Source: a bacterium (GTDB lineage: Bacteria > Cyanobacteriota > Vampirovibrionia > Gastranaerophilales > Gastranaerophilaceae). From it: 32,265 nt of DNA. The DNA lies in assembly GCA_017467605.1 (NCBI GenBank), contig JAFUSQ010000045.1, positions 1 through 32,265 on the forward strand. The letters are read 5' to 3'. A program made the position numbers and the translations under genes. Below the pieces are notes generated by a model. The model saw only the letters and a program-made list of their open reading frames with translations. It ran no database searches and had not been told where the DNA came from. This document shows positions 274-12,247 of the stretch, piece by piece. Each line of letters opens with the position of its first letter. The first letter of the stretch is position 1.

Positions 274-1419
274 TTATTGTGCAAATTTATATTGATTTTG
301 TTTTGTAAAAATATTGTTTGAATTATTAAATGTATATGTTGAATCTGCATACGGATTTAGTGTGCCGTTTGTAAACGTTCTATTGTAGAACATGTCGTTT
401 GAATACGAATTAGGCAGACTTTGCGAACCAAACATCATTGTATTATATGCTTGATTTATCGGTGTATTTAAGCTTGATAAATTCAAATTCTGTAAATTTG
501 CCATAGGATTTGTTACAGTCGTTGAAGTTTTTCCGTTTGCAATTTTTAATGTTTCCTCAATTTCTCTAACTGTAAAGCCGTTTTTCTGTGCTTGTGCAAT
601 TTGAGCATCATCTAGCCTGTATGATTTTAATTTTGTAATTTCTGCATCTGTATATTTCATTGGAATCGGGTGTCGGTATGATGAATTATCAACTCTGGTT
701 GATACAGGTTGTTCTGTTCCAAGAAGTTCCTGTTCGACTGCTTCATACGGATAACCTTTTTGTTGAAGCATAGTGATTAATTCATCAGGAGCACCGTATC
801 GTTTAAGTGCTGCAACTTGAGCATCTGTGTATTGAACCGGTTGTCCGTTGCCTTGAGCAATTTGTTTTGCTTCTTCCTGCTTATCTGTATAGGTTTTGCC
901 TCTGACAAACATTCCTACAATACCGCCTATTACGCCGCCTATAGCAGTTCCGATTCCCGGACATATAGCTGAACCTATCGCAGCACCTCCTGCCATGCAG
1001 CCAAGTTCAACACCTGCTCCGCCGATTTCTTTCATTCCTGCCATAAATCCGCCGTCTCTAAATGCTCTATATATGTTTGGAGCTTCACAAGCTATTGTTA
1101 TAAGTGAACCAATTAATGGCATACGCTTGCCGACTGCTTTTGCAAGTCCTTTAATGCCGCCGGATTTAAAGCCGTTAGCTAAAAATTTTGGCAAGCCTAC
1201 TGTATTTTTAAATAGTCTTGTGAAAAATCCGCCATTTTTTGCAGATTGCCTTGCTACATTTTTTTCAAGGGCAAGCCCGCCTGCTTTGACTTTTGTCCAA
1301 ATAGAGCCTTTTGTATGCCTTGCAGCTTTGCCAATGACTTCGCTGCCTGTCCCAAGCAAAAATTCAGGTGCGAGTTTGAGTGCTCTTAGGCCGTAGCCAA
1401 ATAATTTTCCAATTCCCAT
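274..1419 (-). CDS. Unknown protein with glycine-zipper core and duplicated helical repeat
   Basis: Function is unknown. The 381-aa product has a basic N-terminal region with TKGSIWTKVKAG (36-47) and NGGFFTR (62-68). A Gly/Ala-rich hydrophobic core follows at about 133-173, containing GSAICPG (149-155) and many GxxxG steps. A roughly 36-aa helical unit then occurs twice, at 197-233 and 256-292; both copies start YTDA. The Asn/Ser/Thr-rich tail carries NPYAD (355-359). The neighbouring minus-strand gene (1574-2350) is a paralogue sharing the first two blocks and NPYAD but not the duplicated unit. AGGAG lies five bases before the ATG. The glycine-zipper core resembles membrane-inserting segments of bacteriocins or effectors, but this is only inference. 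No classical signal peptide is seen. Confidence 0.8.
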   Translation of the reverse strand: MGIGKLFGYGLRALKLAPEFLLGTGSEVIGKAARHTKGSIWTKVKAGGLALEKNVARQSAKNGGFFTRLFKNTVGLPKFLANGFKSGGIKGLAKAVGKRMPLIGSLITIACEAPNIYRAFRDGGFMAGMKEIGGAGVELGCMAGGAAIGSAICPGIGTAIGGVIGGIVGMFVRGKTYTDKQEEAKQIAQGNGQPVQYTDAQVAALKRYGAPDELITMLQQKGYPYEAVEQELLGTEQPVSTRVDNSSYRHPIPMKYTDAEITKLKSYRLDDAQIAQAQKNGFTVREIEETLKIANGKTSTTVTNPMANLQNLNLSSLNTPINQAYNTMMFGSQSLPNSYSNDMFYNRTFTNGTLNPYADSTYTFNNSNNIFTKQNQYKFAQ

Positions 1420-1514
1420 GTTTTCTCCTATAATTTTTTTTCTTTATCCCCTATATTTCTATAAAGTTTATTTATTAAAAAGAATTGTCTTTTTGTAAAC
1501 AAATGTTAAATAAA

Positions 1515-1542
1515 AACAGAACTTTAGAAATAAAGTTCTGTT
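1515..1542 (-). terminator. Rho-independent terminator of the second glycine-zipper gene
   Basis: A perfect 12-bp stem (1515-1526 with 1531-1542) has a 4-base loop. Read on the minus strand it is followed by a T-rich run. It lies 31 bases past the stop of the minus-strand gene 1574-2350, so that gene and its downstream paralogue are probably separate transcripts. Confidence 0.8.
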
Positions 1543-1573
1543 CAATAAGGGAAATTATATGATTATGATTCTA

Positions 1574-2350
1574 TTATGCCATTATATTGAAATTCATTCC
1601 TTGCATCATAATATCATCAGCATAGGGGTTTACATATTCGTTATTAGAGAATGGATTTGACATTGCAGTGTTTTGGCTGAACGGATTTCCTTCAAATGAA
1701 GGTGTCTGAACTTGCGGTTGAGTTTGTGCTTGTGTTGCTTGAGCAATTTGCGCCTGTTCTTCTGCTTCAGCTTTTTTTTCAGAGTATGAGCTGCCGACAA
1801 TTTTCTTAGCAAGCCATTCACCCGCTAACCACCCGATTAAACTTCCTACACCCGGACATATTGCAGAACCGATTGCTCCGCCTATTGCGCCGCCGCCCAA
1901 TCTTGCTCCGGTTTTTACAACCTCTGTAACACCTTGACCAATTCCTTGTTCTGTTGTTGCTTTCCAAATGTTAGGTAATTCAAACAATACCATTGGAAGT
2001 GCTGTTAAAAACGGAACATTTTTACCTAAACCTTTGAAGAAACCTTTAGGCCCTGCAAAAAATGATGCAATAGGACCTTTCCCTGAAATTCTTGCGGCTC
2101 TTGCATATTTTTTTGTTAATTCAGGTACAAATTTTAAATTGCTTGTCACTCTTGTAAAGAATGAACCGTTTTTCTGTAAATCTTCAACTGCTTTAAATCC
2201 GGCTTTGGCTTTTGTCCAAACAGAACCTTTAGTTGAACGCATAGCTGCTCCTGCAATATCGGAACTTGCCCCAAAAATTGCATCAGGTGCAGCTTTTGCA
2301 ATTCTGGTTACATAACCCGTCACTTTTGGAATGAATGAAATAACACTCAT
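1574..2350 (-). CDS. Unknown glycine-zipper protein, paralogue of the gene at 274-1419
   Basis: Function is unknown. The 258-aa product shares with its neighbour the block TKGSVWTKAKAG (40-51), NGSFFTR (61-67), a Gly-rich hydrophobic core (about 148-185) with GSAICPG (161-167), and a C-terminal NPYAD (241-245). It lacks the duplicated YTDA helical unit. Instead it has a Gln/Ala-rich linker and two NPF motifs (222-224, 232-234). A second hydrophobic stretch is at about 112-127. AAGGTGG precedes the ATG by six bases. The gene has its own terminator. The tandem, diverged arrangement suggests duplication of a lineage-specific family with a constant core and variable tail. A membrane-active or host-directed role is conceivable but not shown. 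Confidence 0.8.
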   Translation of the reverse strand: MSVISFIPKVTGYVTRIAKAAPDAIFGASSDIAGAAMRSTKGSVWTKAKAGFKAVEDLQKNGSFFTRVTSNLKFVPELTKKYARAARISGKGPIASFFAGPKGFFKGLGKNVPFLTALPMVLFELPNIWKATTEQGIGQGVTEVVKTGARLGGGAIGGAIGSAICPGVGSLIGWLAGEWLAKKIVGSSYSEKKAEAEEQAQIAQATQAQTQPQVQTPSFEGNPFSQNTAMSNPFSNNEYVNPYADDIMMQGMNFNIMA

Positions 2351-2548: not shown

Positions 2549-3424
2549 TTAACCTTCTCCCAAATTCAATTGAGAGAATTGTACAATCTTATTTTTACCG
2601 CGTTTTTTAGCGTTATATAAAGCATGTTCCGCGTATCTTATTATTGTATTTGCATCTTCTTCCGTGTCAGGAATACATGGGAATGTAGAAATTCCGCCTG
2701 AAATTGTTATAGGGTGGCGTTCTTCCTCTCCCGCAGGAATGAATTCCATTTTTTCAATATCTTTGCGGAATCTTTCCGCAAACAAAAATGCATTATCTTC
2801 TGAAGTGTTTGGAAGAACTACGATAAATTCTTCATCACCGTAACGAGTCAAAATATCTTCTTTTCTTATAAGTTGTTTTAATTTATCAGCAATTGAACGC
2901 AGAAGAACATCTCCCCATTCATAGCCGTAAATATCATTTACAACTTTAAAGAAATCTAAATCGAACAACAATACAGAAAGTGCATTTCCGTAACGTTTTG
3001 AACGTGAAATCTCTTGTTCCATACGTTCAAGCAAATATTTTCTGTTATGCAAGCCTGTTAATTCATCAGTTGTTGAAAGAGTTTTTAATTTATCTCTCAA
3101 TTCTTTAATTTTTAACATGTTTTTAACACGTACAACCAATTCCTGATTATCAACAGGTGTTTTTATATAATCAAAAGCTACCGCACGAACTGTTGCACCT
3201 TTAAAGGTTTCGCCGATAAACAAAATAGGAAACTTAAATTTAGTTACCATTAAAACATCTTTTATATCCGGAACACTTTCTATAATAATTACTCCGGGAT
3301 TTAAAGTTTCGTAATCCTTCAAATTAGAAGCATTTTCCAATCTTACATTAGAATCTTCAATATTTGAAATAACATCTGCAATAGATGAAGATTTTTTATC
3401 TGTATATATAACAATATTCTTCAT
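2549..3424 (-). CDS. Receiver-like plus GGDEF protein with degenerate signature
   Basis: This is a cytoplasmic protein of the diguanylate cyclase family (c-di-GMP from two GTP). Residues 1-105 resemble a response-regulator receiver. D9 and the K88-T-P switch region are present, but the expected phospho-acceptor position holds Glu49 (VIIIES), so it is probably a pseudo-receiver. Residues 115-285 are a GGDEF domain: DELTGLHNRKYL (120-131), DLDFFKVVND (155-164), then RYGDEEF (194-200). The signature reads GDEEF where GGDEF or GGEEF is usual. The inhibitory I-site RxxD is intact (RKED, 187-190). Cyclase activity is therefore uncertain, and c-di-GMP binding may be the main role. It is transcribed divergently from the alpha/alpha-toroid gene at 3534. 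GAGGG precedes the ATG. Confidence 0.88.
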   Translation of the reverse strand: MKNIVIYTDKKSSSIADVISNIEDSNVRLENASNLKDYETLNPGVIIIESVPDIKDVLMVTKFKFPILFIGETFKGATVRAVAFDYIKTPVDNQELVVRVKNMLKIKELRDKLKTLSTTDELTGLHNRKYLLERMEQEISRSKRYGNALSVLLFDLDFFKVVNDIYGYEWGDVLLRSIADKLKQLIRKEDILTRYGDEEFIVVLPNTSEDNAFLFAERFRKDIEKMEFIPAGEEERHPITISGGISTFPCIPDTEEDANTIIRYAEHALYNAKKRGKNKIVQFSQLNLGEG

Positions 3425-5602: not shown

Positions 5603-5668
5603 TAATCAATGCATGTGCCGTAAACAATAATACGGAACGAAAATTATTGAAAGGAATTGTTCAGAACT

Positions 5669-7177
5669 ATGGGAATGGCAGCATCACAAGCCAGATTACT
5701 AAGTATCACAGCTCGATTGTCTAACAATGAGATGGAACAACAATCTCTTGCTTATTCAAAACAGCGTTTGTCTGATAATTCAGAACAAATTAATGATGCT
5801 TATCTTGAAGCTTTGAACAAAACTAAATATCAAGTTTTAACAGGTTATAATAATTCTCAGGCAAATTATGCCGATTTGACATATTCTCAAATTACCGGAA
5901 GTAACACTGTTGCAACAGGAAAACAATATCTTGTTAAATCTAAAGACGGACAAGTTTTGGTTTCTTCAAAAATTGCAAGTGCTTATAAAAAGAATAACGG
6001 TGATTTTAACAGATTTTTAAGAGATTTGGGATATACTCAATCTGATATTGATGTTTCTAAATATTCTGATTCTGAAGAAGCAGTCCATAATGCTTGGGAC
6101 AGATATTTGGCAGCTGTTGGTAAAAGTATTGATAATATCGACAGTCAACATATTTTGAATTTCGGCTACAATTCTTTCAGTACAGAATCTTATGATGGTT
6201 ATCCTACATACGATACTGCATATATTTCTGATTCTTCAGGTGAGCCTGAATATATTTACAGAGATGATACAGGTTACTATAAAGAAAGATATACATTAGG
6301 TGCAAGAACAGTTGAAGATGCTTATGGTAATATTTCTACAATAATTTGCTATCAAACTGCAGATCAACAAGGTACTGAACAGTATACAGAAGTTACTGGT
6401 GCCGGTATCAATTACAATACCGAAACTAAAAAATTCTCTTACATAAATGAATACGGAGAAACAGTTGACGCTGATGCTTTATATATTGATCCGAATGAAA
6501 ATTTTGTAAGTGAAAGCTATAAAAATTATTTAACATTTGATGGTGAAGAATTCGTATCAGAAGGCGGATTGGTTTATGACATTTATAAAGAATCAAGAGC
6601 TTTAAATTATGAAGGAACCACTCAAGCTCAAAGAGAATTGTATGATTATGCTACTGCCATAACTGAAGCATTGTACTGTAAAGAACTTACAAATACTGCA
6701 AATAATTTAACATATGATGCTCAAATGGTTACTTATTACAAAAATATTTTCAACGAAATGACCAAAAACGGTTATACAACTTTAGCTGAATCATATGGAC
6801 AAAAGTTAGCAACAACAGTTGCGAGTGATACGATGTCAAGTGAAAGTAAAGTTTTCCAAGATCCGGATTGGTTTGTAAAACAATTAAAAGCAGGTAATTT
6901 AACGTTATCATACTTCTCAACAGTTGAAAAAAGCTTTATTAATACAACACTTGATGATGACGAATCAATAACAGAACGTGAAGATACTACTGCAATGGCT
7001 ATTGCAGAGCAAGTCTATCAAAATCAGATGGATAAAATTGAAAGTCAAGACAAACAAATTGATCTTCAATTAAACAAGTTAGAATCTGAACATAATGCAT
7101 TACAAACAGAATATGAGGCTGTTAAAAAAGTAATTAGCACAAACGTAGATAAATCTTTCAATATATTTAACGCATAA
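5669..7177 (+). CDS. Flagellin/filament-like surface protein with terminal coiled coils
   Basis: The function is unknown. The 502-aa product begins MGMAASQARLLSITARLSNN, an N-terminal amphipathic helix. Its last 65 residues are strongly heptad-like, rich in Gln, Glu and Leu, and end DKSFNIFNA. The middle is rich in Tyr, Asp, Ser and Thr, like an exposed variable domain. Helical ends around a variable middle is the plan of flagellins and related self-assembling proteins, but no specific flagellin residues are claimed. I recall similar MGLAASQARFL-type proteins as a recurrent family in Gastranaerophilales. There is no Sec signal peptide. ATG 5669 is chosen because it starts the conserved segment. 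GAAAGGA lies about 13 bases upstream; an in-frame TTG at 5657 is too close to it. A terminator follows at 7228-7254. Confidence 0.75.
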   Translation: MGMAASQARLLSITARLSNNEMEQQSLAYSKQRLSDNSEQINDAYLEALNKTKYQVLTGYNNSQANYADLTYSQITGSNTVATGKQYLVKSKDGQVLVSSKIASAYKKNNGDFNRFLRDLGYTQSDIDVSKYSDSEEAVHNAWDRYLAAVGKSIDNIDSQHILNFGYNSFSTESYDGYPTYDTAYISDSSGEPEYIYRDDTGYYKERYTLGARTVEDAYGNISTIICYQTADQQGTEQYTEVTGAGINYNTETKKFSYINEYGETVDADALYIDPNENFVSESYKNYLTFDGEEFVSEGGLVYDIYKESRALNYEGTTQAQRELYDYATAITEALYCKELTNTANNLTYDAQMVTYYKNIFNEMTKNGYTTLAESYGQKLATTVASDTMSSESKVFQDPDWFVKQLKAGNLTLSYFSTVEKSFINTTLDDDESITEREDTTAMAIAEQVYQNQMDKIESQDKQIDLQLNKLESEHNALQTEYEAVKKVISTNVDKSFNIFNA

Positions 7178-7575: not shown

Positions 7576-7709
7576 AAAATTCCTAACTATCATAACAATT
7601 CTATTATTTATAATTCACCAACGGAAATTATTACCAAAAAGTTTTGAGTTTAATAAATTTTTATAGCCGATAGGGTTAATCTTTAGTTTGTACTCAACTA
7701 ATTTAACGA

Positions 7710-7738
7710 TTGTATTTATTTTTCATCTTTTATATAAT
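7710..7738 (+). promoter_or_regulatory. Promoter of the AsmA/TamB-like gene
   Basis: TTGTAT (7710-7715), a 17-base spacer, then a perfect TATAAT (7733-7738). The expected start of transcription is about 7745-7748, at the ATG itself (7748), with no Shine-Dalgarno sequence. This implies a leaderless or nearly leaderless mRNA. Confidence 0.65.
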
Positions 7739-7747
7739 ACTTGTAAT

Positions 7748-10700
7748 ATGAAAAGAGAATGGAAAATTGCGACAGTATTGGGTAGTTTTGCGATGGCCTG
7801 CGGTTTATATGCGTGGGGAATACCTGCTGTTGTAAATCTTCCTGCTCATAAAAATTTTATAGAAAATAAAATATATGAAACTTCAGGCTACAAGGTTGAT
7901 ATTGGTAATCCAAAATTGTCTATGGGGTGGTTCCCGTCTGTTTGGATACAAAGTGATAATATTTCACTCTTTAATTATGATAATACCAAGGTTTTATCTG
8001 TGGATAATCCCAAGTTAAAATTAAGACTTTTGCCTTTATTGAGTAAAAAAATAGAAATAACTAATCTTTCTGCAACAAGAGAGTATGTAAATTTTGTATT
8101 TAAAGATTCTGATTTTTATATCGGGCAATATAAGCTTGAACCTCCGAAATCTCCGTCAGAGTTTAAATTGGCGAAGATGAATTTGAATATCGGTGAATAT
8201 AATATTTTACTTGACGATAAAAATAATAATCAAAAAGTAAGTTTGAACGGACTTTATTTCAGGCATGGAAAGTATATCCAAAATAAGCAGATGCAATTTG
8301 CAACTGAGGCAGTTTTTAATTCAGGAAAGAAAAGTGCAAATATTTTTGCAGATGTTGATATTAATCTCCCTATAGATAGGTTATCTGAGGATAAATTAAG
8401 AATTGATGCTCAAATAAATAATTTTGATTTGGCATCAATATCAGATTATGTAAGTTCTTTATCCGGAGGGAAAATTAAATCTTTAAGCGGATTTGTAAGT
8501 TTTAATGCCGATACGGTTAATGACAATTTTGGTCATAAAAAAGTTACTACTCGTCTTGAAACTGATAATTTAAAAATTATTGGTGCCGATAGAGCATCAT
8601 CAATAATTTATGACGATAAATTGACGGCAGATGTTAATTTCTTAACCGTTGATAACGGAATAATGTTTGAAAATACAGAGTTAAATGCCGATAAATTACA
8701 TGCAAAGGTTAACGGTAAAATTTTTGATTTAGGTCATAAAGAACCTAAATATGATGTTGAAGCGGAAGTTTATGATACGAGAATAGAAAATGCCGTTGCA
8801 ATACTTCCGGGTAGTGAGAAATTATTGCCTGATTTTAATTTATATAAACTTAAAAAATATGTGTTTTACGGCGATGGTCAAGGTAAATTAAAATTTAAGG
8901 GAAAGGGTATAAAACCGAATGTAACAGGAGAAGTTAAGCTCAGAGATGCATATCTTATTAAACCGATTAAGGGTGCAAATGCTAATGCAAGTATTGATTT
9001 GAAATTTATAGGGCAGAAAATGTTGTTAAATGTTTTTGTCCCAACTACAAATAATCAAAGTGTTACGGTTAAAGGTAATGTATTGCTTGATGGTTCAAAA
9101 TATTCCGAATTAAATATTAAAAGTACGGATAGCGTATTATTAGAACCAGCAAGAGAAGTTTTAGTTCCTTTACATGAGATTTTAAAATTTCAATTGGGAC
9201 CTGTCCCTTTGATGAATATTGCAGGTATCGGAAATATAGATTTGCGTTCTTCAGGTACTAAATTAGATCCGCATATTTGGGGAAATTTTAATTTTAGAGA
9301 TGTAATTTTATCTTTTATTGACATCAATAATTTAGAGCTTCACAAAGGGGCAGGGGAAGTTCTTTTTGATGATAAAAAAATTACTTTTAAAAGTACGCAA
9401 GCATTTATTGACGGAAAACCGGTTGAAGTTAATGGTGATTGCGTTATTTTGGGAAAATTGAATGTTTATGTAACTTCAAAATCTCAGGATATTAAAAAGT
9501 TAATAAAAGCAGTTAATTCTTCTCCATTGCTTGTTGATATTCAAAAAGTTGTGAAGCCATTTACAAAACCTGATGGTACGGCTGATTTATTTATTCACGT
9601 GTACGGGTTAGTTAAAGATGCTGAAGAAATGGTGTTTAATCAAGATTTATTTGCAAAAGGTACAATAAAACTGCATAATGCTAAAACTGTTATGCAGGAT
9701 ACATATTTACCTTTTACTGGTGTAAACGGTATTGTCAATTTTGATCAATATAATTCAGATTATGATGTTACCGGTAATGTACGCCAATCAAATGTTCATG
9801 TTTGGGGGACAGGCACAAATTCTCAAATAAATTTGAAGGCTCATTCTGATAAACTAAAATTAGCTGATGTATTTGAACTTTTGCACCCTGATATGGTTCT
9901 GCCTTATAAAAAAGAAATAGGTGAAATTTATACTTCATTTAATGCTTCATATAACGGAAAAGCTGAAGCGGGAAAGATTGATTATAATAAAATATCAGTT
10001 GACGGTAAAATAATTTCTAATATGACTGCTAACAATCCGATAAAAACAGAAGGCGGGACTTTTACAATTAAAAATGGTTTGTTGAGTACGTCAAATTTAA
10101 AAGGTTTATTTAATAATAATCCGTTTGCCCTTTCATTTGTTATGAACAATATTGATAAAGGTCAGATGAGTATAGCTCAAGCAAAATATAATTTTAAAAA
10201 TTTTGATTTGAGTTCAATTAGTACAATTAAAAATCAAATTAAACTTCCGAAAGAATTGGCCTCACAAATTGATAATATAGCTAATGTGAAAGGTAATATA
10301 GATATTTCCGGAAGTATTTCAAATAATAATATAAATGCTGATACAAATTTGAAATCAGTTTCGTTTGTTTATAAACCATTTGATGCGGTAGTGAAAATTA
10401 TAAACGGGAATGCCAATATTCGAGGAAATGTTTTATATTTGGATAAAATTAATTCTACAGTAAGCTCTATGCCCGTCTTTTTGAATGGTAAAATCTCTAA
10501 TATTTATCAAAATCCGAATTTGAATTTATTTATAAGTTCTAAATTAACACAAAACTTTTTTGACAGATTCTATAACTCAAAAGCTGTTTATCCTGTAAAA
10601 ATTAAAGGTGATATAAACTTTTATACAAGGTTAAATGGTGTTTTAAATTCTTTGAATGCAAAATCTAACCTTAATCTTGCCGAAAACGCTTCGATTTATT

Positions 10701-12247
10701 ACATGGGTGCAACAATTGCAGGAGCACCGACCGGAACTTTAAATTCAGACGGAATGACAACAAACCCTGTTTCTGTTATTTCGGATATAATACTTTATCC
10801 TAACAGATTGAGAGTGAATTCGCTGAATTATAACCAAACAATTACTTCTCAAAATAAGAAAAAATCTGAACAAAATCAGGTTTCTATGTCCGGAGATTTG
10901 TATTTATTAAAAGATAAAATTGTTGGCTTTAAAAACTTTAAAATTAAAACTGCAAATCCTACGAATGCGAGAATTTTCAATGTCTTATTCAAAAAACCTA
11001 CTATAAAACAAGGAGTATTTACTACGGATTTATTAATTAACGGTACTTCAGAAATTCCTTATATATTAGGTTTTCTAAATATAAAAAGTGTGGATATTCC
11101 GCTTTTTAATTCTACAGTCAGAGATATTAACTTAGATTTTCAAAAAGATTATATTAATCTTGATTCTAAGTCTATTGTCTTGACCAATGATATATTAATG
11201 CAGGCAAAAATAGTTAATAATTTAGTTAAACCTATAAGAATTGAAGATATAAATATACAAATGGACGAATTAGATTTGAATGTTGTAGCATCTTCAATAA
11301 GTGATTTGGAGGCTGACAGTACAAGAAAAAATCGTAACAAATCTGATGAAAACACTCAATTATTTGCTCCTGATACCGTTATAATTAAAAATGCTCAAAT
11401 TAATGCGGATAATGTTCTTATTAAAAAGGCCCAAGCTAAAAATTTTAAGTCTCATATTACATTAGGTAGTGAGCAAAAATTAAGGATTGATAATTACAGT
11501 TTCGATATTGCTAATGGGACGGTAGACGGAAATATTGTTTATGACTTAAAAAATCTCAAAGGTGATGCTGATATGAACATCAATAATGCTGATGCTCAGA
11601 TTATTGCTGAAAACTTCTTTGATATGACAGGTCAGGTTTACGGTATTGTAACAGGGAAATTGAATGCTTCTTGCTCCGGTATTACAAGTGTTGATTGTGT
11701 AAATACTTTATCAGGAAGCGGAGATTTTGAAGTAATTGATGGCAGAATGCCTAAACTCGGTTCTCTTGAATACCTGTTAAAAGCAGGAAATTTAATTACT
11801 GGCGGAGTTACAGGAGTTTCAATTAATGGTATTATTGATCTTATTACTCCTTTAAAAACCGGTAATTTTAACAGTATTAGCGGGAATGTTCATGTAGAAA
11901 ACGGTGTTGCTGACGATATAAATGTGTATTCAAACGGTAATGATTTGAATATGTATATGACAGGCAGTTACAATTTATCTACTCTTGTTGCCGATATGGA
12001 AGTATATGGAAGTTTATCAAAAAACATTTCAACACTTTTGGGCAGAATTGGTAATACCTCTTTGAATACTTTATTTAATACTATTCCCGGAGTAAAAATA
12101 AATGAAATTAATCCAAAATCCACAAGTAATATAAATAAAATTCCTAATTTTGATAAGTCTAATATTTTGAGAGTTTTTAAAGCCGAAATTTATGGTGATA
12201 TTAACGGGAATAATTATGTTAAAAGTTTCCGATGGATAAAGGATTAG
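7748..12247 (+). CDS. AsmA/TamB-like envelope protein
   Basis: A 1499-aa protein with one N-terminal membrane anchor (about residues 5-28, basic MKREWK before it). It is followed by a very long, Asn/Asp/Lys-rich beta-repeat body without Cys clusters. The C-terminal third has the AsmA-family pattern: LSGSGDFEVIDGRMPKLGSL, then a TPLKTGNFNSISGNVHVENG region. The family (AsmA, YhdP, TamB) forms periplasm-spanning grooved beta rods that move phospholipid or aid outer-membrane assembly. This implies a diderm envelope. The 4.5-kb length is typical of the larger members. ATG 7748 is preferred over an ORF extension at 7688, because the promoter's TATAAT ends nine bases before it and the basic-plus-hydrophobic start follows. 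It converges on gyrA. Confidence 0.85.
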   Translation: MKREWKIATVLGSFAMACGLYAWGIPAVVNLPAHKNFIENKIYETSGYKVDIGNPKLSMGWFPSVWIQSDNISLFNYDNTKVLSVDNPKLKLRLLPLLSKKIEITNLSATREYVNFVFKDSDFYIGQYKLEPPKSPSEFKLAKMNLNIGEYNILLDDKNNNQKVSLNGLYFRHGKYIQNKQMQFATEAVFNSGKKSANIFADVDINLPIDRLSEDKLRIDAQINNFDLASISDYVSSLSGGKIKSLSGFVSFNADTVNDNFGHKKVTTRLETDNLKIIGADRASSIIYDDKLTADVNFLTVDNGIMFENTELNADKLHAKVNGKIFDLGHKEPKYDVEAEVYDTRIENAVAILPGSEKLLPDFNLYKLKKYVFYGDGQGKLKFKGKGIKPNVTGEVKLRDAYLIKPIKGANANASIDLKFIGQKMLLNVFVPTTNNQSVTVKGNVLLDGSKYSELNIKSTDSVLLEPAREVLVPLHEILKFQLGPVPLMNIAGIGNIDLRSSGTKLDPHIWGNFNFRDVILSFIDINNLELHKGAGEVLFDDKKITFKSTQAFIDGKPVEVNGDCVILGKLNVYVTSKSQDIKKLIKAVNSSPLLVDIQKVVKPFTKPDGTADLFIHVYGLVKDAEEMVFNQDLFAKGTIKLHNAKTVMQDTYLPFTGVNGIVNFDQYNSDYDVTGNVRQSNVHVWGTGTNSQINLKAHSDKLKLADVFELLHPDMVLPYKKEIGEIYTSFNASYNGKAEAGKIDYNKISVDGKIISNMTANNPIKTEGGTFTIKNGLLSTSNLKGLFNNNPFALSFVMNNIDKGQMSIAQAKYNFKNFDLSSISTIKNQIKLPKELASQIDNIANVKGNIDISGSISNNNINADTNLKSVSFVYKPFDAVVKIINGNANIRGNVLYLDKINSTVSSMPVFLNGKISNIYQNPNLNLFISSKLTQNFFDRFYNSKAVYPVKIKGDINFYTRLNGVLNSLNAKSNLNLAENASIYYMGATIAGAPTGTLNSDGMTTNPVSVISDIILYPNRLRVNSLNYNQTITSQNKKKSEQNQVSMSGDLYLLKDKIVGFKNFKIKTANPTNARIFNVLFKKPTIKQGVFTTDLLINGTSEIPYILGFLNIKSVDIPLFNSTVRDINLDFQKDYINLDSKSIVLTNDILMQAKIVNNLVKPIRIEDINIQMDELDLNVVASSISDLEADSTRKNRNKSDENTQLFAPDTVIIKNAQINADNVLIKKAQAKNFKSHITLGSEQKLRIDNYSFDIANGTVDGNIVYDLKNLKGDADMNINNADAQIIAENFFDMTGQVYGIVTGKLNASCSGITSVDCVNTLSGSGDFEVIDGRMPKLGSLEYLLKAGNLITGGVTGVSINGIIDLITPLKTGNFNSISGNVHVENGVADDINVYSNGNDLNMYMTGSYNLSTLVADMEVYGSLSKNISTLLGRIGNTSLNTLFNTIPGVKINEINPKSTSNINKIPNFDKSNILRVFKAEIYGDINGNNYVKSFRWIKD

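What the first reader, a model, noticed from the sequence alone, without database searches (positions are those of the whole stretch)
274..2350. Tandem paralogues with a glycine-zipper core and a shared NPYAD tail motif
Both share TKGS[IV]WTKxKAG, NG[GS]FFTR, a GSAICPG-containing Gly-rich core, and NPYAD near the C-terminus, while linkers differ. Constant core plus variable middle resembles secreted or membrane-active families. I know of no description.
Basis: partly seen in the sequence, partly recalled or inferred. Interest (0 to 1): 0.6.

Follow-up and report, generated by a model that had tools for sequence, protein, structure and literature searches.

The report
Paired glycine-zipper proteins of gut bacteria
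Two neighbouring genes of an uncultured gut relative of cyanobacteria encode duplicated proteins built around a helical hairpin that probably sits in a membrane; the family is widespread in that bacterial lineage, has no known function, and is not part of a virus.

Summary
Both ORFs exist as described and are true paralogues (38% identity over 199 aa). The window is from a Ca. Gastranaerophilales MAG. P2 (1574-2350, -) is the local copy of a chromosomal gene, 'A', found in 40 of 60 genomes of its family with one query, in all 38 genomes of 12 genera with a profile, weakly in other families of the order, and in none of 32 genomes of other orders. P1 (274-1419, -) is an A-duplicate (one clade, support 100/100) sitting where other genera have a divergent partner, 'B', that shares only the core. 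The glycine zipper is real: glycines four residues apart are conserved across A, P1 and B around a CPG-type turn, and AF2 gives a moderate-confidence helical hairpin. NPYAD half survives: in P2 it belongs to a conserved tail, but P1's copy is probably not its counterpart. No Pfam or NCBIfam family fits; PHROG tape-measure hits read as analogy. Best reading: a lineage-specific membrane-inserting hairpin protein; secretion is unproven. By-product: a second flagellar-type export machine conserved across the order.

The parts
1574..2350 (-). P2, gene 'A': 258-aa glycine-zipper protein, orthologue of an order-specific chromosomal gene
274..1419 (-). P1: 381-aa duplicate of A occupying the slot that holds the divergent partner B in other genera
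1739..2065 (-). P2 core (residues 96-204): helix, then two zipper helices joined by a CPG turn, then a SYSEK helix
   Evidence: alignment A4, AF2 core model pLDDT 66, 71-77 in the hairpin, Gly columns
832..1161 (-). P1 core, homologous to the P2 core (residues 87-196)
1586..1630 (-). P2 conserved C-terminal tail NPYADDIMMQGMNFN (residues 241-255)
385..411 (-). P1 segment NSYSNDMFY (337-345), the likely counterpart of P2's tail
   Evidence: the single-profile score does not favour it
343..357 (-). P1 literal NPYAD (355-359); only NP[YF] is conserved here in orthologues
724..831 (-). P1 36-aa helical repeat, copy 1 (197-232), conserved in five P1 orthologues
547..654 (-). P1 36-aa helical repeat, copy 2 (256-291), seen only in the window's P1
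1514..1543 (-). terminator-like 13-bp hairpin between P2 and P1, so the pair may be two transcription units
   Evidence: consensus match only

Best explanation
P2 belongs to a protein family found here only in the order Gastranaerophilales, and P1 is its duplicate. The working part is a helical hairpin: two helices packed through conserved glycines four residues apart, joined by a CPG-type turn, with lysine/arginine-bearing ends. The hairpin inserts into a membrane with both ends on the same side. The Asn/Gln-rich tail, ending in a short conserved peptide, stays outside the membrane and probably docks a partner. A usually stands next to a second zipper protein (B, or P1 in this clade), so the two probably act together. 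Shown: homology, duplication, chromosomal context, taxonomic range, conserved zipper glycines. Supported by a moderate-confidence model: helical hairpin. Inferred: membrane insertion, sidedness, partner docking. Which membrane (the cell's own inner membrane, which I favour, or a target's) is not decided.
For: Gly columns four apart conserved over 35 A/P1/B cores: P2 G136/G140, G157/G161, G169/G173/G177; three are invariant. Helices 42-69 and 73-90 of the core with a break at the CPG turn. One charged residue in P2 and none in P1 in the 27 residues around the turn, with K/R on both sides. Hydrophobic segments at the same place in nearly all members. Adjacency of A and its neighbour kept in distant genera. 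P1 monophyletic 100/100. Tail conserved in the window's clade. PHROG hits to zipper regions of tape-measure and tail-lysin proteins, none with reversed P2.
Against: Hydropathy is only moderate (best 19-residue windows mostly 1.4-2.0), so the hairpin could be a soluble or peripheral bundle. The full-length model is poor (pLDDT 55). No meaningful fold match in the PDB. G007 has A with no second zipper gene beside it, and G094/G100 have A and P1 at separate loci, so joint action is not obligatory. A terminator-like hairpin separates P2 and P1.
Confidence: 0.62

Rival explanations
1. Exported membrane-permeabilising protein: A and B leave the cell and insert their zipper hairpin into a target membrane, as proposed for the T6SS effector Tde1 and for phage tape-measure proteins.
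For: Same kind of GxxxG hairpin; PHROG tape-measure hits over the core; published role of a glycine zipper in Tde1 translocation, with similarity to tape-measure proteins (PMC10240207); no obvious signal peptide; an order-wide export machine is present.
Against: No contractile sheath gene (PF04984) in the window's genome. A or B lies near the FlhA-type locus in 1 of 18 relatives, and in the FliP-type regions only in two sister genomes, some 13 genes away. Vertically inherited, in a housekeeping neighbourhood, with no toxin or immunity gene seen.
Confidence: 0.2
2. Cytoplasmic or peripheral structural protein whose Ala/Gly-rich helices form a bundle with no membrane role.
For: Moderate hydropathy; Ala/Gly-rich helices also occur in soluble bundles; the low-confidence full model is simply all-helical.
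Against: Invariant glycines four apart on both hairpin arms and a nearly charge-free stretch around the turn are the usual mark of membrane helix packing.
Confidence: 0.15
3. Prophage or tape-measure remnant.
For: PHROG hits.
Against: Flanked by pyruvate kinase, uridine-kinase family, SLH protein, isopropylmalate/isocitrate dehydrogenase family or seryl-tRNA synthetase genes in many genomes; only one weak relative in the viral contigs (31% identity); conserved locus across genera.
Confidence: 0.02

Closest known systems
Glycine-zipper families of Pfam (PF13488 Gly-zipper_Omp; PF20721 C19orf12-like)
   Same: Short GxxxG-rich hairpin segment; weak matches over the zipper only (P1 to PF13488 17.4 bits)
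   Different: Every match is below the curated cut-off; no flanking homology
Phage tape-measure / tail-lysin zipper regions (phrog_1047, 167, 794, 10341)
   Same: Best detectable sequence similarity: 17 of 18 A proteins match phrog_1047, best E 9e-13; reversed P2 gives no hit
   Different: A is a 260-330 aa chromosomal protein with no phage genes around it
T6SS effector Tde1, N-terminal glycine zipper (PMC10240207)
   Same: Works-like model: a zipper segment that permeabilises a membrane
   Different: No nuclease domain, adaptor or T6SS seen here; no direct sequence comparison was made
Type III translocator pairs (major and minor hydrophobic translocators; from general knowledge)
   Same: Two adjacent hydrophobic helical proteins without a Sec signal
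   Different: No sequence match in any library searched; not linked to the export genes

Membership tests
PF13488 Gly-zipper_Omp | score at or above the curated cut-off (25 bits) | tested here: not met
   P1 17.4 bits; P2 no hit; best B-type protein 21.8
PF20721 C19orf12-like | score at or above the curated cut-off (30 bits) | tested here: not met
   12.3 and 13.4 bits for P1 and P2; 28.4 for one B
Phage tape-measure protein | full-length similarity to a tape-measure family | tested here: not met
   only a stretch of at most about 210 residues of much longer families matches
Phage tape-measure protein | encoded among phage tail genes | tested here: not met
Glycine-zipper membrane protein (broad kind) | conserved GxxxG packing on hydrophobic helices | tested here: met
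   hairpin model
Glycine-zipper membrane protein (broad kind) | membrane insertion | not testable with these tools
   needs fractionation or a topology reporter
Type III secretion translocator | secretion by a type III apparatus | not testable with these tools
   apparatus genes present, secretion untested
Type III secretion translocator | gene linkage to the apparatus | tested here: not met
   near the FlhA-type locus in 1 of 18 relatives; near the FliP-type locus only in two sister genomes, some 13 genes away

The most novel reading that the evidence does not exclude
A and B are the membrane-inserting pair of the non-flagellar, flagellar-type export machine that appears to be conserved across Gastranaerophilales, giving these gut commensals a contact-dependent delivery device.
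Probability: 0.08. Interest if true: 0.85.

Novelty: new variant of a known kind. Interest (0 to 1): 0.36.

Why it matters
It defines an uncharacterised glycine-zipper family carried by most sampled genomes of a common, uncultured gut lineage, with a clear duplication and partner-replacement history. It gives a compact test object for how zipper hairpins are used outside phages and toxins. The export-machine observation made on the way may recast the 'incomplete flagellar gene sets' reported for non-motile members (PMC4040986).

Tried and rejected
Phage origin: rejected from gene context and from a viral-contig scan that gave one weak locus. Contractile injection system: no sheath gene in the window's genome. 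Tail motif as a genome-wide sorting signal: an exact DNA pattern for the tail found only P2 in the whole genome; divergent copies would be missed. Linkage of A/B to the export machine: mostly not seen. Adjacency of A to the MGMAAS-type gene (window 5657-7177): present in the window's clade, but in G094/G100 a breakpoint between A and P1 explains why it persists, so it is ancestral linkage and weak evidence. A link between A and loss of flagella: in the same 60 family genomes, strong A matches (E <= 1e-9) are in 24 of 35 genomes without the ~860-bit FlhA and in 3 of 25 with it (my count), but the query comes from a clade without that FlhA and similarity decays with distance, so relatedness may explain it. 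PDB by sequence and by fold of the core: nothing meaningful. The profile test of the P1 tail register was inconclusive.

Full report
What was checked. Both ORFs are present at the coordinates given, on the minus strand, and are paralogues: 38% identity over 199 aa, E 5e-30. The named N-terminal and core motifs are all there. The window has the length of contig JAFUEV010000056.1 of MAG RGIG4430 (roe deer omasum) and matches it, and its relatives are labelled Ca. Gastranaerophilales / Melainabacteria.

Range and context. P2 alone matched 40 of 60 genomes (25 of 41 genera) of the same family. A profile of 18 A proteins matched all 38 genomes of the window's family in the order sample (12 genera, all of which had also matched the single query), 14 of 22 genomes of other families of the order, mostly weakly, and none of 32 genomes of other orders of the class. 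The genera without a match were not retested with the profile, so 'most of the family' is the safe statement. In the window's own genome only P2 and P1 were found. In most loci A is followed after about 120-160 bp by a second gene, then after about 400 bp by a 278-aa uridine-kinase/PRK-family gene, with an SLH-domain protein and pyruvate kinase beyond. This is an ordinary chromosomal neighbourhood, not a phage.

Partner slot and duplication. In the window's clade the second gene is P1, an A-duplicate; in other genera it is B, 400-500 aa, sharing only the core with A. P1 proteins form a single clade (100/100) that groups with the A proteins of the same clade (98/90), which fits one duplication. 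In G094 and G100, A and P1 lie at separate loci and P1 stays beside the kinase gene; in G007 A alone stands there. A terminator-like hairpin lies between P2 and P1, so co-transcription should not be assumed.

The core. In an alignment of 35 A, P1 and B cores, three glycines are invariant and further ones are at 74-94%, at spacings of four: P2 residues 136/140, 157/161, 169/173/177, and also 186. AF2 on this alignment gives helices 42-69 and 73-90 with a break at the CPG turn, pLDDT 71-77 there and 66 overall; the full-length model is poor (pLDDT 55). The stretch around the turn is nearly free of charge, with K/R on both sides. I read this as a membrane-inserted hairpin with both ends on one side; that is inference.

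The tail. In the window's clade most A proteins end in (N)P(Y/F)(A/S)(D/N)DIMMQ..FN..A. In other genera the end reads MDQDFMAM.SG.N.LN or differs more. P1 orthologues carry NSYANDMLYQQLF or similar, matching P1's NSYSNDMFY, while P1's literal NPYAD corresponds to a bare NP[YF]. The shared five letters are therefore probably a coincidence of register; a profile score on the window's P1 alone points the other way, so this stays an argument from orthologues. P1's middle holds a conserved 36-aa helical motif, doubled in the window.

Families. No Pfam or NCBIfam model fits P1 or P2 (Pfam matches all below cut-off; NCBIfam none for P2). PHROG tape-measure and tail-lysin models match A, P1 and B over the zipper-containing region, and reversed P2 gives none. 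A published case, Tde1, links such zippers, in an effector and in tape-measure proteins, to membrane permeabilisation (PMC10240207). That is a works-like comparison, not membership.

Export machine seen on the way. Besides a FHIPEP of about 850-890 bits that only some genomes have (taken as flagellar FlhA), 54 of 60 family genomes and 56 of 60 genomes in the order sample have a full-length FHIPEP of about 670-735 bits (my counts). The window's genome has only this second one at full length. It lies in the order FliE-FliF-(FliG position)-FliH-FlhA; the FliF-to-FlhA order is kept in all 19 regions examined, with FliE undetected in two. A FliM/N-FliO-FliP-FliQ-FliR set lies on another contig. FlhB, FliI and flagellin were not searched for, so 'non-flagellar' is a proposal. 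A/B genes are not generally linked to these loci.

Verdict. A real, lineage-specific glycine-zipper family with a clear duplication; probable membrane hairpin; function and location open. Literature searches in the open library found no description of it, which is a limited test.

Noticed in passing
L083:12160-18063 (G000:C18) and L107:7871-11650 (G000:C76): FliE-FliF-(FliG position)-FliH-FlhA and FliM/N-FliO-FliP-FliQ-FliR gene sets; this FlhA class is full length in 54 of 60 family and 56 of 60 order genomes sampled, including many without the higher-scoring flagellar FlhA. Candidate non-flagellar type III export system of the whole order.
   Followed up: partly
L085:14352-15833 (G000:C53): A further FHIPEP-like protein of about 493 aa matching only the C-terminal half of the family, present in nearly all sampled genomes.
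   Followed up: no
window 5657-7177: MGMAASQARLL... protein with several paralogous loci in the genome; matches are confined to its N-terminal ~125 and C-terminal ~50-180 residues, an architecture like flagellar axial proteins. One relative, L084:3757-4809, lies about 5.7 kb from the FliE end of the FlhA operon.
   Followed up: partly
L032 and L033: Two contigs of the same MAG (32252 and 32265 bases) are identical over the 8298 bases compared: a redundant contig in the assembly.
   Followed up: partly
window 2549-3424: The GGDEF protein beside P2 is 92-98% identical between species whose A proteins are only about 37-61% identical: strikingly slow-evolving.
   Followed up: no
window 7688-12247: 1519-aa protein with no Pfam hit and an AsmA-like look by eye.
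   Followed up: no
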